The position numbers and the translations under genes were made by a program. Below, piece after piece: positions 6,054 to 64,000 of a DNA stretch of 64,000 nucleotides (within the stretch, counting starts at the first letter, position 1; each line of letters starts with the position of its first letter). Under the pieces are notes generated by a model. The model did not search any database. It had not been told where the DNA came from and saw only the letters and a program-made list of their open reading frames with translations. Source of the DNA: Brucella pituitosa (GTDB lineage Bacteria > Pseudomonadota > Alphaproteobacteria > Rhizobiales > Rhizobiaceae); assembly GCF_003049685.1 (NCBI RefSeq), contig NZ_PYSY02000007.1, positions 62,001 to 126,000 on the forward strand, given 5' to 3'.

Positions 6054-6923
6054 CTATTTATCGACCCTGCGCGTGATCGGCTTCCACTTCTTCGGGTTCG
6101 TAACAAAGGTGGCGTCATTATCGATACGAACACGACGCTGACCGATAAACAGTTCGTCATGCGTGCCCTTGGCGCGAACTTCGCTGGAAGAAATCAGAAG
6201 CGACTTAATCAGGCCAGCTTCAACCAGACGCCGGTACTCGATCATGCCCGCATAATCTCGCCGCAAGAGATTGAGATTGATCTGTAACGCTTCCTCGGCC
6301 TGTCTGCGTCCTTCTGACCAGCCTTCCGCCATATACTTATCCCAGACGGCGCGTTCTTCCTTATCGACGGGCAAAAATTGCTCGTCGGGTTCGGTCGCTT
6401 TGTCGAGCGGCATCACAAGGTAGTCGCGCCAGGTCGGAATAACACCGACAATGCGGCCCGGCTTTTCAATCCGGTAATACTCGTCCGCTGCCACGCTTTC
6501 GCGCCCGCCTTTGGTGATTGTGAGCGCTTCGGTGGCGCGTGTCACAACGGGCGGCACGACATAGCCTGCCTCACGCGGAGCGGTGTAAACGACTGCGCTG
6601 AAATTGAACTCTTCCGAAAGCTGTGGCGATTTGCGCTCCAGCTCGGCCATGATTTCATAAGCGCGCCTTTCAAAGCCCGCCTGCGCGGCGTAGGAGATGG
6701 CTGCATCTCGCAAAATCTCAACCCGCGCCCGCTCAACGCCAGCGCCGGGGTTTCCACTACGGGTACGTTTGGCAAACTGCTCGTAGGTTGCCGGGACGTA
6801 ACTTGCGCCGGTCAACTTGTCTGGGCCGCCGATAAGAGGCGGCGGCGCATCTATGTCTGTCTTAGTGGTTGTGCAGCCGGCAATCGTCATCGACGCCAGA
6901 ACAAAGGAAACCGTCAACCGCAT
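6054..6923 (-). CDS. dotC: DotC/TraI outer-membrane core lipoprotein
   Basis: A lipoprotein with lipobox TIAGC (lipidated Cys17), 289 residues. The conserved DotC block is clear: GVIPTWRDYLVMPL in the middle and WDKYMAEGWSEGRRQAEEAL followed by RRDYAGMIEYRRLVEAG near the C-terminus. In Dot/Icm systems DotC and DotD form the outer-membrane ring and help target DotH to the outer membrane. The gene overlaps the dotD stop codon by about one base, so the unit is tightly coupled. Confidence 0.92.
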   Translation of the reverse strand: MRLTVSFVLASMTIAGCTTTKTDIDAPPPLIGGPDKLTGASYVPATYEQFAKRTRSGNPGAGVERARVEILRDAAISYAAQAGFERRAYEIMAELERKSPQLSEEFNFSAVVYTAPREAGYVVPPVVTRATEALTITKGGRESVAADEYYRIEKPGRIVGVIPTWRDYLVMPLDKATEPDEQFLPVDKEERAVWDKYMAEGWSEGRRQAEEALQINLNLLRRDYAGMIEYRRLVEAGLIKSLLISSSEVRAKGTHDELFIGQRRVRIDNDATFVTNPKKWKPITRRVDK

Positions 6924-54886: not shown

Positions 54887-55288
54887 TCACCAGACCCGTC
54901 CCGGCCATGATGGTTCGGACACCAACGCATCGAAGGCAGTATCAGCCGAGACAAGCTTCAATCCGCGCGTGATCGCTGTTGCCGCGATGAACCTGTCAAA
55001 TGGATCGCGGTGCGCCCATTCTAACGTAGCTGCAAGAAGGCTTGCCTCTGCCGATACTTCCACAAGTCGTCCGCCCTGTTCGTCGGCAAGCCCGACCAAC
55101 CGGGGGAGAAACGGCTCCATTTCCGGCCATTTGCCCAGCCGGACCTTTTGTCCAATCTCGAACAAGCTAATGGCGCTGATTGAAACCGTCTCTGCCTGCT
55201 CAATGGCCTCCGTGGCAATGACTGAGAGGCGGGCGTCCGCCGTCAGCGACCAGGTCCATGTGTGGGTGTCGAGCAGGATATGCTTCAC
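54887..55288 (-). CDS. vapC: VapC-type PIN-domain toxin
   Basis: A 133-residue PIN domain: first acidic residue in ILLDTHTWTWSL (Asp7), Glu in SLFEIGQKV, and DPFDRFIAATAI with the third and fourth acids near 100, then LVSADTAFDAL. The family cleaves tRNA or rRNA. The GTG start at 55288 overlaps the antitoxin stop (GTGA). Confidence 0.9.
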   Translation of the reverse strand: MKHILLDTHTWTWSLTADARLSVIATEAIEQAETVSISAISLFEIGQKVRLGKWPEMEPFLPRLVGLADEQGGRLVEVSAEASLLAATLEWAHRDPFDRFIAATAITRGLKLVSADTAFDALVSEPSWPGRVW

Positions 55289-55518
55289 TCGCCACCCTCC
55301 CAAAGCGCCAACTCATCGTCGCTCATCGGCTCGAAGAAATCGGGTCCAGATCCTGTCAGTTGCCCTTTCAACAGGCCAATCGTGAATCCGTTCTGAGGAA
55401 CGGGGACGATCCTTACGACGGGACGCTTGCCCTTGGCGATGATAACCTCTTCGCCTGCCAGTGCCGCCTCGATAAGCTTTGACAAGTTTGTTTTTGCCGC
55501 GTGGACTGTGACCTGCAT
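55285..55518 (-). CDS. Phd/YefM-type antitoxin
   Basis: A 77-residue antitoxin: MQVTVHAAKTNLSKLIEAAL then GEEVIIAKGKRPVVRIVPV is the Phd DNA-binding half; the C-terminal tail (EPMSDDELALWEGG) wraps the toxin. GGAGG before the ATG at 55518. It is overlapped by vapC and forms the usual TA operon. Confidence 0.9.
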   Translation of the reverse strand: MQVTVHAAKTNLSKLIEAALAGEEVIIAKGKRPVVRIVPVPQNGFTIGLLKGQLTGSGPDFFEPMSDDELALWEGGE

Positions 55519-55526
55519 TTCAGCCT

Positions 55527-55560
55527 CCATTAGCTAACTTAGCTAATATATAAGCTATAA
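55527..55560 (-). promoter_or_regulatory. vapBC operator/promoter region
   Basis: Repeats of AGCTAA (TTAGCTAAC TTAGCTAA) next to TATATAAGCTATA form the expected operator just upstream of the antitoxin gene and overlap a likely -10. Confidence 0.5.
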
Positions 55561-58791: not shown

Positions 58792-60005
58792 TAGGATCGC
58801 TCCCAAACCTTATGTATCAGGGCAAGGATTTCAAAATTCACGCGGTCCGCGCTTTCTAGGGGCACGCTTGAGTGCTTCACGGCCTACTTCGCCCGGCTCC
58901 AACTCGTAAAGGGTCTTCTTAGCCACTGCCGCACCAGCTATAGCAGTCGATTCAAGTGCTTCCGCGACCAAGACGTCATTGCCAAATAGACGACGCATTA
59001 CACCGGACATGTATTTCTGTGGACCATCGTTTGGATTAACTCTGGTCAATAAGAACTTAAAATGATCATGTTCAAACTGCGCTCCAAATTGGGCTAACGC
59101 TTCGGACAAATCAGAGATCATTATGAGAAACTGATTACAGGAGGCCACATCCAGCATCGCTGGATGGACAGTTACACAATTAAAGACGTTGCCGCATAGA
59201 GTGCAGCAAGAGTCGTATAGCCGAGCGACGGCGGGGTATCTAGAATGACGAGATCGTAATCATCTTGGATCGAGAAAATCGCTCTGCCTAACCTTTCAAA
59301 GAACAGACCAAGTTCATCCCTATTCCGAGACGTCAGATATGATGGCGTATCGAATTCGAAATCCATAAGTTCAAGATTGCCCGGCACCAGATCCACGCCG
59401 GCGAAATACGTGGAACGAATAACTTCCGAAAGCGGACGGCGTTCATCGTCGTAACGCAATGCAGCATATGCAGTTTCATTTTCTCCAAGATCAAACTCGG
59501 GCTGGATCCCGAACATCGACGTCATGGACGCCTGTGGATCTAGATCGATGCAAAGCACTCGATAACCTTGGAGGCCCAGGAAGTGAGCCAGATGGACAGA
59601 GGTTGTCGTCTTGGAGCTACCGCCTTTGAAGTTTGATGTTGCAAGGATCTGCAATCTTTCGCCCGCTCGACGACGTGGCAGCAATTCCAGAGCTCCGTCA
59701 GGTCTTAAATCTGCTAGAAAGGATCTTAGCTGGTTCACCTGATCCAATGTGTATGTGCGACGATTGTTTTCCGCTCGTTCCGGCTGTGGCCCCTTCCCTT
59801 CTATGGTAAGCTGCCGGAGTGTGCTTTCAGGGACATTCAGTAGACGAACGAGATCAAGTGTGGAGAAAGTACGCGTAAATGTCTTACGTGCTTGCGGTGG
59901 ATAAAACGCTTCCCGCATATCCCGCAGTTCCACTGAAAGCTTCGAGGTGTAACCTTCGATCTTTGAAGCGGTATCTCTGACGCTGATAGGAGTGGGTTGA
60001 AGCAT
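58791..60005 (-). pseudogene. repA: repA partition ATPase gene, split by two small insertions
   Basis: ParA-like Walker ATPase of repABC with autorepressor HTH (STLDLVRLLNVPESTLRQL), deviant Walker A NFKGGSSKTTT and VLDTPPSLGY. From ATG 60005 (GAGGAAAGA upstream) the frame ends early at 59172 because of an extra GT in the ACAC/GTGT at 59174-59177; sequence goes on in the next frame (HPAMLDVASCNQFLIMISDL). An extra C in the run 58859-58862 shifts it again; without it the frame ends in TAA overlapping the repB ATG. Repaired, it is 403 residues, normal for RepA. As written it is inactive. Confidence 0.9.
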
Positions 60006-60121
60006 TCTTTCCTCTTGACGGTTATGAACCCGAAAAGCATTCATTACCGTCAAGATACCCATATCTATCGATTCTACAACAGATTTTTCGTTAATGAAAA
60101 GTTAATGCATAAACGAGACGA

Positions 60122-61063: not shown

Positions 61064-64000
61064 TCAGACGATTGCAACCGACACGGCAACAGGTCCTTTG
61101 CGGTTGAACCGAACTTGGAAGCGGACGTTTGTCCCGATCGAAACGTCCTCGAACTCGCCGCGGGCGATCGATGACTTGTGCGATAATATTTCCTTCGGGT
61201 ATGAGCCAATCCGGATGAAGAACATATGCCCGGAGATTGATTGGACATAGCCGGCCTGCTCTGAGATGCGCCTCGTGAAATGATTCTCTCGATTGGCAAC
61301 AGGCCGAAATGTGGGCGGAGACTTCTCATCAATTTCATCAAATAGGCTGGCGGCTTTGGCCGCTTCGCCTCTTACAAACAGGAACTGAGCGAGATCGAAA
61401 CGCGCCTCATAATTAGCATCTCCGGTCGAATAGGCTCGCCGCAGATGACTCTCGATGAGGTCATCATCACCGGCATTCTCCACGACATGATGACGGGCGA
61501 TCTCGGAATGCACCGCCTTGTCGTCGGGGCTATTGGTCAACGCCTCGTTCAGCACCTTAAGCGCTTCGCCAGCGCGGTCCCGAGAGCGATAAATGCGCGC
61601 CACCCTTATCGCCGCGCCAGAGCCCTTCGGGTTCAGGCGAAGGGCCTTTTCCAATGCGCGTAACGCTCGATCTTCTTGATCCATTTCCTCGCGATAACGC
61701 GCCTCGATCTGGATTATGTCCGGATCGTCGGGGAATTGCTGTAAAGCCAGCCTGATCCGGCTTTCAGCATCGCGTGTTTTCTCCGCAAAAAACATCGCGT
61801 CGTGCTCCTGAGCGTCGTCGCTCAGCTCTCGGTTGAGTTCGACAATCTCGTCGACAAGCATTTTGCATTGGCTCGAGGCCGCAAATCGACTACTGGTCGA
61901 CAGCGAGTTGAGCCGTTCACGGGCTCTCCGGCGCAGCTGGTCTTTAAGCAACGGTGAGTCGACTTTGGTCGCCCGAATTCGATCAATTTCGGCTTGGGTG
62001 TGGATGACGGCTGTGTTTTTCTCATCAATGGCATGGGCCTCATTCGCCCGGCGCTCCGCTTCATCCAGGGAGCCTCGAGGATGGTGAAGTTCGAACAGCG
62101 CCCATTGTTGGTAAAGAAATGCCTGGTTTGGGGCGACTGATATTGCAGCTTCATAGATACGCCGGCCTGGTGAAGGTTCAGCGAAAGTATCGGCAAGTGC
62201 GCGACCTTTTGTAATCTGCTCAAGTGCCTTGGAGTCCGACGAGTACCCAAAATCAAGACCCGAAATTAGGCGGCAGAACTGATCGGCTTTCTCATCATCG
62301 CTTGGGCAAGCCTGCCTGAAGACAAGTTGCGCCACCCGAGGGTGGCGGGTAAGATAGCTGTAGTCACGGGAATACTTGTCTACTTCAGCGCGAACGATGT
62401 TTTGCAGCGGTGCAAAAAACTTCTCTTGATAGTCCGAAAAACTGATGCCGGAGATGCGTGAGATTGTGCCTGCACGGGCGCTGACTTTGTATTGGTGCAT
62501 AGTCGCGATGTCGAGATAAAGCTGTCTTGCTTGCTCAGGGCTAATGCGTTGGTGCTCAAGACGAAGAACGTCTTCGAAAGGCCTGCCTTGCGTTAGCTGA
62601 TGCAGAGCAACAAGCAACTGCCGTTCAGCCACGTTCTCAAATCGCCGAATGCGCTCATCCCTTGTCTCATTGCTGAGCAGACCTAGGCATTTATGCTTCT
62701 CAAGAAGGTCAAGGAGGCCATCGATCTCCTTTCGGGAAAGATACCGTACTTTCAGTTCGGGACCAGGAAACTCGCTCTCCAGCGGATCGCAATAGGTATT
62801 CCAGTCTGAGTCTCTCTCTGCTCCCACCACCACAAGCGGCAGTTTTGCAGCACGGGCGTGCCGAAGTAGGGCGAGCAATTCATGCACATGAAGCCCTACA
62901 TCGTCGACGAATAGGTAGATTGTTTTTCCCGTCAACTCATACAACTCGGAGAACACCTCTGGCCGGAGTGCGCCGTCTGGCCTGAACCAGACGACTAGCA
63001 TATTCGACGCGGTTGCAGCCTCCCAGGCGGATCGTTTCAAAGCAATCGTCTTGCCTGCGCCAGCAGGACCCTTGGCCATTAATAACACGGGTCCGCCAGG
63101 AGCATCGTTCTCAAGAACGGCTTTAAAAAGGATATCGTCTTCGACCTGACGGCGGACGTCCAACCGGTTGACGATAGCCCCCCAACCGGTATCATAGCCT
63201 GAATAGAACTGTTCAGCTGTTTGGGGTTCGAAGGGCATCTCGGCGTGGATGAACGTCAGATCGTCGCGGAGCGACTTGTTCGTTGCGTCTGATTCGAGAC
63301 TATGCGTCTTAAACAGGCGCCGGATCGGGAAATCTGCGACATCGGCCGAGTGTGAAAGACGCCGGAAAAGTGGAGGTATGGCCTCGTCGAGAGTTGCCAT
63401 GAACTCTCCGAAATAGCCCTTGATCAGCTCCACGTTTTTCGTAGCCCAGAACGCGACATCTTCGGCTTCCGCGTTCGGCGTCACCATGTACCAGCGTGGT
63501 CGTCGACCTGGACCAAGATTGTAGATTAGATCCCGGATATGGGAGTCATCAAGGCGATAGCCTACGAAGATGAAGGTGTGTTCGAAAGCCATATCTTGAA
63601 GGCGCAGAAACAGCCGTGAACGGTTTTTTGAGTAGGTCGAGTAAACCTCGCGCGAAAGCACCGGTGGAATATCAGCATCGTGGATGTGATTCAGGCAGCC
63701 ATGAAGTTTTAGATAAGGCACTGGATTTGCAAATTCCCGAAGCCTTTCATCGATGGGCTCATCGTCTTTGACGAGCGGAACAATCTGCTGGATCTTCGTC
63801 GTGACCTCACCTTGTTGGCGCAATTCCTCTTCAACCTCGGCCGGCATGCCGTGGTCGGGATCGATCTCGCGTTGCTGCGGCCGCCATAAATGATGGGCAA
63901 CGAATTTCAGCAACAGGGCTTCGGGCGCGGGGAAGGGCAGGGGCCTGCCGGTTGCAGCCATCGACCAGGCTTCGAGATAGGCCAAATCCGAAGTCAGCGC
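61064..64000 (-). CDS. SIR2-domain / P-loop NTPase / TPR protein, probable anti-phage defence (5' end outside window)
   Basis: At least 978 residues are visible and the frame is open to the window edge. The visible N-terminal part ends a SIR2-like domain (LKLHG near residue 93, VLSREVYSTYSKNRSRLFLR, FIFVGYRLDDSHIRDLIYNL near 139-157, counted from 63985). A P-loop NTPase follows with GPAGAGKT near 306-313 and Walker B YLFVDDVG; then a helical TPR-like array (about 600-880); and a final 55 residues with cold-shock/OB-fold character (GYVQSISGHMFFIRIGSYP, VRFQVRFNRKGPVAVSVAIV). SIR2-STAND proteins (Avs5-type and relatives) deplete NAD on phage sensing. A defence role is inferred from the architecture. 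Confidence 0.8.
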   Translation of the reverse strand, partial: ALTSDLAYLEAWSMAATGRPLPFPAPEALLLKFVAHHLWRPQQREIDPDHGMPAEVEEELRQQGEVTTKIQQIVPLVKDDEPIDERLREFANPVPYLKLHGCLNHIHDADIPPVLSREVYSTYSKNRSRLFLRLQDMAFEHTFIFVGYRLDDSHIRDLIYNLGPGRRPRWYMVTPNAEAEDVAFWATKNVELIKGYFGEFMATLDEAIPPLFRRLSHSADVADFPIRRLFKTHSLESDATNKSLRDDLTFIHAEMPFEPQTAEQFYSGYDTGWGAIVNRLDVRRQVEDDILFKAVLENDAPGGPVLLMAKGPAGAGKTIALKRSAWEAATASNMLVVWFRPDGALRPEVFSELYELTGKTIYLFVDDVGLHVHELLALLRHARAAKLPLVVVGAERDSDWNTYCDPLESEFPGPELKVRYLSRKEIDGLLDLLEKHKCLGLLSNETRDERIRRFENVAERQLLVALHQLTQGRPFEDVLRLEHQRISPEQARQLYLDIATMHQYKVSARAGTISRISGISFSDYQEKFFAPLQNIVRAEVDKYSRDYSYLTRHPRVAQLVFRQACPSDDEKADQFCRLISGLDFGYSSDSKALEQITKGRALADTFAEPSPGRRIYEAAISVAPNQAFLYQQWALFELHHPRGSLDEAERRANEAHAIDEKNTAVIHTQAEIDRIRATKVDSPLLKDQLRRRARERLNSLSTSSRFAASSQCKMLVDEIVELNRELSDDAQEHDAMFFAEKTRDAESRIRLALQQFPDDPDIIQIEARYREEMDQEDRALRALEKALRLNPKGSGAAIRVARIYRSRDRAGEALKVLNEALTNSPDDKAVHSEIARHHVVENAGDDDLIESHLRRAYSTGDANYEARFDLAQFLFVRGEAAKAASLFDEIDEKSPPTFRPVANRENHFTRRISEQAGYVQSISGHMFFIRIGSYPKEILSHKSSIARGEFEDVSIGTNVRFQVRFNRKGPVAVSVAIV

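What the first reader, a model, noticed from the sequence alone, without database searches (positions are those of the whole stretch)
61064..64000. SIR2-STAND-like protein with a C-terminal cold-shock-like domain
The order SIR2, P-loop NTPase, TPR resembles NAD-depleting anti-phage proteins. The last 55 residues carry a pattern close to a cold-shock/OB fold (aromatic FF-I pair, then R-F-V-F spaced strands and GPVAVSV), which I have not seen described at the end of such a protein. An OB-fold at the sensor end might read phage RNA or ssDNA. The gene sits beside repABC, a usual place for plasmid cargo.
Basis: partly seen in the sequence, partly recalled or inferred. Interest (0 to 1): 0.8.

Follow-up and report, generated by a model that had tools for sequence, protein, structure and literature searches.

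The report
Broken sirtuin-STAND gene fused to integrase
A plasmid gene that looks like a bacterial antiviral sensor does end in a real cold-shock (nucleic-acid-binding-type) domain, as its relatives do, but this copy has lost the front half of its sirtuin domain and carries a piece of an unrelated DNA-recombination enzyme there instead, so it probably cannot destroy NAD as its relatives may.

The parts
63809..64000 (-). in-window part of the tyrosine-recombinase N-terminal fragment (protein residues 60-123; the ORF starts at contig C7:126177, 177 bases past the window). No recombinase catalytic domain: Pfam Phage_integrase starts at residue 181 of an intact paralogue
63805..63810 (-). fusion junction: integrase similarity ends and SIR2-family similarity begins, in frame; no clear shared sequence between the two partners in register at the join
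63422..63808 (-). C-terminal half of the SIR2_2 domain (residues 124-252), with the KLHG histidine but without GxGAS and TTNYD
62783..63211 (-). nSTAND_NTPase5 domain (residues 323-465; Walker A GPAGAGKT, Walker B-like IYLFVDD)
61298..61810 (-). TPR region (residues about 790-960)
61067..61264 (-). C-terminal cold-shock domain (residues 972-1037); RNP1-like HMFFI, RNP2-like KEILSH, then GPVAVSV
61064..61066 (-). stop codon of the ORF

Best explanation
The ORF is a chimera. An illegitimate recombination joined, in frame, the first ~123 codons of a plasmid tyrosine recombinase to a SIR2-nSTAND5-TPR-CSD gene from about codon 139 of its intact relatives onward. SHOWN: the two halves, the sharp junction, the loss of the GxGAS motif and catalytic Asn, the intact Walker A, and a cold-shock fold at the C-terminus as in the family. 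INFERRED for intact members: TPR plus CSD form the sensor arm; an infection signal (phage RNA, ssDNA or a protein) lets the STAND ATPase oligomerise, which brings SIR2 domains together to hydrolyse NAD+ and abort infection, as reported for Avs5. INFERRED for the window protein: it may still fold and bind ATP and ligand but has no NADase; it is a decaying remnant, expressed at best from the integrase start.
Against: No test of this family against phage was found in the open-licence papers searched, so the defence role is analogy. The Asn count is biased: the genome-contig scan required TTNYD and one of two viral patterns did. Found without that demand: 7 of 7 plasmid or whole-genome relatives in the alignment have TTNYD, and so has L137, found by its NTPase; but L171, found by its STAND part, has its SIR2 N-part in another frame. 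Low dN/dS mostly reflects evolution before the fusion. Relative-rate counts are mixed: window vs Chelativorans 33 vs 33 (outgroup G007) but 44 vs 19 (outgroup Ahrensia); window vs G007 39 vs 47 and 33 vs 70. The window's RNP residues are partly non-aromatic (M985, L998). Of 109 neighbour ORFs no PADLOC family recurs in more than 2 among the 25 of 43 matched families shown.
Confidence: 0.72

Rival explanations
1. Assembly artefact: the junction is a chimeric join near a contig end, and the real strain has an intact integrase and an intact SIR2-STAND gene.
For: The contig ends 575 bases past the window; integrase paralogues are repeated in the genome; the assembly is listed with 5.55% contamination; no match across the junction was listed for any other of the 200 genomes searched (at most 4 candidates scored per genome) nor among the 40 best of 659 plasmid records; repA next door is split into two frames, which could be sequence error.
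Against: The two partners share no clear sequence at the join, so a repeat-driven misjoin is unlikely; the integrase part differs from the genome's other copies (82-89% DNA identity), so it is a separate copy; the frame is kept across the join; no SIR2 N-half and no intact copy lie elsewhere in an assembly listed as 99.99% complete.
Confidence: 0.12
2. Functional effector swap: the recombinase N-terminal domain, a DNA-contacting part in tyrosine recombinases (recalled), has replaced the SIR2 effector, giving a new ATP-switched, nucleic-acid-sensing DNA binder, or a dominant-negative that dampens intact copies.
For: In-frame fusion at a point before the recombinase catalytic domain; open over 1037 codons; Walker motifs kept. 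STAND proteins often exchange N-terminal effectors (recalled).
Against: No second example of the junction was listed; half a SIR2 domain is still attached, which looks like breakage rather than a swap at a domain boundary; Leu at the RNP2 aromatic position occurs in no other of the 45 members, a hint of decay; no intact partner copy in the genome to dampen.
Confidence: 0.06
3. The CSD of intact members is a structural cap or protein-binding domain, and the protein senses a phage protein, not nucleic acid.
For: The domain diverges from classic CSPs (20 of 45 reach E 0.01 with Pfam CSD); characterised SIR2 and STAND sensors often see proteins (DSR2: tail tube protein, abstracts in the listing; Avs5: phage protein JADA, passage).
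Against: Positions that match the CSP RNP aromatics stay aromatic: 985 in 38, 987 in 42 and 998 in 42 of 45 (that these residues stack on nucleic acid in CSPs is recalled). Sequence and structure point to true CSDs rather than generic OB folds.
Confidence: 0.35

Closest known systems
SAMD9 family (animals and bacteria; Mekhedov, Makarova and Koonin 2017, PMC5445408)
   Different: SAMD9 has AlbA_2 in its core (missing in many bacterial members) and a Walker A with Gly for Lys (GGT/S); the family here has the Lys in 45 of 45 and, in intact members, a SIR2 with its catalytic motifs. The sequence link is weak: SAMD9 chain 37ib_A at E 0.081 with the NTPase-region profile
Avs5 (AVAST type 5)
   Same: SIR2 effector with GAGxS and TTNxD, STAND NTPase, C-terminal repeats; NAD hydrolysis on phage sensing (PMC12931631, passages)
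   Different: Avs5 is described with nSTAND3, and a search of the main text for OB-fold found none; here nSTAND_NTPase5 matches 45 of 45 and nSTAND3 8 of 45. NCBIfam Avs5 scores 18.7 bits against a cut-off of 1000 on one relative; PADLOC Avs5 matches 2 of 45
DSR2 / ThsA sirtuin defence proteins
   Same: SIR2 domain (PADLOC ThsA profile in 45 of 45, Dsr2 profile in 30 of 45)
   Different: Match limited to the SIR2 part in the proteins whose coordinates were shown; NCBIfam Dsr2 25.7 and 29.8 bits against a cut-off of 1400
Tyrosine recombinase found on repABC-type plasmids (donor of the first ~123 codons)
   Same: N-terminus 87-89% identical in the same genome and up to 92% in the genus
   Different: The window ORF has no catalytic domain and the window shows no convincing trace of the integrase 3' part (best other hit E 0.31)

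Membership tests
SIR2 NADase effector (this gene) | GxGAS NAD-binding motif and catalytic Asn in TTNxD | tested here: not met
   absent from the window protein; TTNYD present in its seven intact relatives P0002-P0008 and GxGAS or a near form (one GSGAL) in them
SIR2 NADase effector (this gene) | catalytic His (K-L-H-G) | tested here: met
   YLKLHGC, residues 155-161
nSTAND_NTPase5 (PF25199) | profile match over the curated cut-off | tested here: met
   119.7 bits against 34 for the window protein; 45 of 45 members match at E<=0.01
[quoted passage not shown]
   GPAGAGKT and IYLFVDD
Cold-shock domain | CSD sequence profile | tested here: met
   window alone 18.4 bits, under Pfam's cut-off of 27; family profile against PDB CSDs E 3.6e-11 to 6.2e-10 for the best; 20 of 45 members at E<=0.01 singly
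Cold-shock domain | five-stranded CSD fold | tested here: met
Cold-shock domain | aromatic nucleic-acid-contacting residues of RNP1/RNP2 | tested here: inconclusive
   window M985, F987, L998, H1000; aromatic in 38, 42 and 42 of 45 at the first three, His in 17 of 45 at the last
Avs5 | NCBIfam / PADLOC Avs5 model | tested here: not met
   not hit by the window protein at E<=0.001 (the missing SIR2 half handicaps it); 18.7 bits against 1000 for the intact P0004
SAMD9 family | Walker A GGT/S with Lys replaced | tested here: not met
   Lys in 45 of 45; the feature is from PMC5445408
SAMD9 family | SIR2-like, STAND, TPR, cold-shock-like OB in that order | tested here: met
SAMD9 family | sequence homology of the core | tested here: inconclusive
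   SAMD9 chain 37ib_A E 0.081 with the NTPase-region profile
Anti-phage defence system | protection against phage with NAD loss | not testable with these tools
   needs bench work
Tyrosine recombinase | catalytic domain (PF00589) | tested here: not met
   Pfam finds none in the window protein; in the intact paralogue it spans residues 181-369

The most novel reading that the evidence does not exclude
The intact family is a nucleic-acid-sensing branch of SIR2-STAND immunity: its cold-shock domain reads phage RNA or ssDNA and switches on a catalytically live SIR2 NADase, and it stands close to the bacterial source of the SAMD9 core, in which the OB sensor end was kept while the SIR2 and Walker A motifs decayed. 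The window copy would then be a natural effector-less version that could still bind the ligand.
Probability: 0.25. Interest if true: 0.75.

Novelty: new variant of a known kind. Interest (0 to 1): 0.4.

Why it matters
The window gene itself is a remnant. Its family matters more: SIR2-STAND proteins from Alphaproteobacteria to Bacteroidota (and, by profile, two archaeal records) end in a cold-shock domain at the place where STAND proteins sense, the same order as in human SAMD9, whose OB end is only predicted to bind RNA in the text read. That offers a bacterial system in which to ask whether this end senses RNA. The case also warns that a SIR2-STAND annotation at a window or contig edge can hide a dead effector.

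Tried and rejected
Reading the N-terminus as a new effector domain: rejected, it is an integrase fragment. Looking for the integrase 3' half, which would mean a simple insertion: no convincing match in the window (best E 0.31), and on C7 only integrase residues 7-122 match. Looking for an intact copy or the missing SIR2 half in the genome: none at E<=1. A shared sequence at the crossover: none clear; an ACAA occurs on both sides but two bases out of register. Pfam CSD on the window protein alone is below the curated cut-off, so family profile and structure were used. Context: 109 neighbour ORFs, the nearer ones picked by me from 279 found, gave Phage_integrase 9 and Resolvase 8; PADLOC matched 43 families, 25 shown, none in more than 2 ORFs, type I restriction and SIR2-pAgo among them; no background set was run, so mobile context is suggested and defence context is undecided. 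Family PF25199 at class level is noisy: 351 of 385 genomes match at E<=0.001 and 14 of 14 controls ring, but only 12 of 385, and no control, exceed the cut-off, so no prevalence was derived. SAMD9 homology by sequence stayed weak. Rows dropped before the family counts: of 80 loci, 31 went into the 45-member alignment (left out: 8 truncated or partial, 5 near-duplicates by eye, 2 records already held, 34 distant partial matches); of 10, 6 went in (2 near-duplicates and 2 distant left out); the other 8 rows are the window, two whole-genome relatives and five plasmid relatives. One member (L051) lacks GxGAS only in the ORF piece I cut. Of the 36 distant loci, 17 ORFs were cut and 15 scanned: nSTAND_NTPase5 in 15 of 15, Pfam CSD in 0 of 15; my CSD profile found 3 of 15 at E<0.01.

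Full report
What is there. The window is contig C7:62001-126000 of a 5.5 Mb assembly, and the contig ends 575 bases past the window. Taking in those bases, the minus-strand ORF is 1037 aa long, from C7:126177 to window 61064. Pfam finds, in order, SIR2_2 at residues 137-252 (from profile position 25 of 141), nSTAND_NTPase5 at 323-465 (119.7 bits, cut-off 34), TPRs near 790-960 and CSD at 987-1035 (18.4 bits, below the cut-off of 27). RepA, RepB and RepC are confirmed next to it, with an S-element and a ctRNA of the p42d type.

The front of the protein is not SIR2. Residues 1-125 match the N-termini of tyrosine recombinases: the best same-genus matches are 80-92% identical, others lower, and many plasmid records, mostly of Rhizobium, Sinorhizobium and Agrobacterium with a few of Ochrobactrum, have such integrase genes. 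In the own genome an intact 379-aa paralogue on C6 is 87% identical over its residues 7-122. At DNA level four other copies (C6, C8 and two on C10) stop matching at the same base, a fifth scrap on C8 earlier, and similarity to an intact SIR2-STAND gene of a same-genus genome starts five bases on; the Chelativorans gene aligns from its residue 139, at window 63808. So the junction lies at window 63805-63810, in frame, with no clear sequence shared in register by the two partners. In the intact integrase the catalytic domain begins at residue 181, so the fusion carries none of it, and no convincing integrase 3' part lies in the window.

What was lost. The intact relatives carry GxGAS-type and TTNYD motifs before the junction point. 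The window protein has neither; it keeps KLHG and the Walker motifs. In the 45-member alignment it is the only member without the Asn, but most members were found with a pattern that demands TTNYD. Of members found without that demand, 7 of 7 in the alignment and one more (L137) have it; in L171 the SIR2 N-part is in another frame than the rest. In Avs5, alanine at the TTNxD Asn abolishes immunity, and GAGxS and TTNxD are called characteristic of all known sirtuins (PMC12931631, passages read). From this, and from general knowledge of sirtuins, the window protein should not be an NADase. The own genome has no second copy and no SIR2 N-half. The same junction was listed for no other of 200 genomes (at most 4 candidates scored per genome) and for none of the 40 best of 659 plasmid records.

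How old. Over 912 codons the closest relative (Chelativorans) is 90.4% identical in protein with dS 1.63 and dN/dS 0.033; the same-genus gene G007 is 86.3% identical, with saturated dS. The part after the junction has no stop. I infer a recent fusion after long purifying selection. Relative-rate counts are mixed: window vs Chelativorans 33 vs 33 changes with G007 as outgroup but 44 vs 19 with Ahrensia; window vs G007 39 vs 47 (Ahrensia) and 33 vs 70 (Chelativorans). The window is the only one of 45 with Leu at the RNP2 aromatic position 998.

The family. Members of about 1050 aa with this order occur, by record title, in Alpha- and Gammaproteobacteria, Bacteroidota, Chloroflexi, Planctomycetota-type and Melainabacteria MAGs, and in viral-labelled contigs. 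nSTAND_NTPase5 and SIR2_2 match 45 of 45 and nSTAND3 8 of 45. Shorter relatives of about 800 aa share SIR2 and nSTAND_NTPase5 and end without a CSD-like tail (L091-L095, L097). Among 15 distant relatives, 3 have a CSD by my profile, two of them in records titled as archaea (L096 Methanogenium, L103 Bathyarchaeota), while Pfam CSD matches none of the 15. Of 109 neighbour ORFs scanned out of 279, 9 match Phage_integrase and 8 Resolvase, which suggests mobile settings; no defence family recurs among those shown.

Likely working. For intact members I infer a STAND switch: TPR and CSD sense, the ATPase oligomerises, SIR2 hydrolyses NAD+. This is analogy to Avs5, DSR2 and ThsA; no test of this family was found in the searches of an open-licence library. 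Whether the CSD reads nucleic acid is open. For the window protein the output is gone.

What is known already. [quoted passage not shown] So the architecture is not new. The present family differs by a normal Walker A Lys and a SIR2 with its motifs. Homology of the two is not shown here (SAMD9 chain E 0.081). The Avs5 paper reports structural similarity of PaAvs5 to human SAMD9. In PADLOC the window protein matches SIR2-bearing models over its SIR2 part only, at E<=0.001; in NCBIfam no model reached its cut-off on the four family members tested.

Limits. Only one assembly holds the fusion and no reads were available. The genus is inferred from Ochrobactrum plasmid hits, not named by any tool. 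A full-length model could not be made.

Noticed in passing
window 58831-60062: repA is split into two ORFs in different frames (both pieces match RepA, TIGR03453), a frame break or sequence error in the plasmid's partition gene.
   Followed up: partly
window 54887-55530: A Phd-family antitoxin (22.8 bits, cut-off 20.8) and a weak VapC-like match (21.2 bits, cut-off 80) as neighbouring ORFs beside repC.
   Followed up: partly
L007 about 6254-6517 (contig C7, past the window): A short divergent ORF upstream of the fusion that looks, by eye, like a prevent-host-death antitoxin; my scan of it failed on wrong coordinates. One plasmid hit has such a gene annotated beside the related integrase (H23).
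   Followed up: no
G000 C6, C8, C10 (L002-L006): Four further copies of the same integrase family in one genome, the two on C10 with internal stops, and scraps on C8.
   Followed up: partly
L096, L103: SIR2-nSTAND5 proteins with a CSD-like end in records titled as archaea (Methanogenium, Bathyarchaeota).
   Followed up: partly
L049 and L050: Relatives in Parvibaculum indicum and in an 8.5 kb contig of Rhodopseudomonas sp. AAP120 have the same length and identical last 72 residues: recent transfer or contamination.
   Followed up: no
L171 4129-7265: A viral-labelled relative whose SIR2 N-part lies in another frame than the rest, a second case of a broken effector half.
   Followed up: partly
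L010, L038, L039, L041, L042: A recombinase gene of the serine/resolvase type, by annotation or by eye, lies within about 3 kb of the SIR2-STAND gene in these loci.
   Followed up: partly
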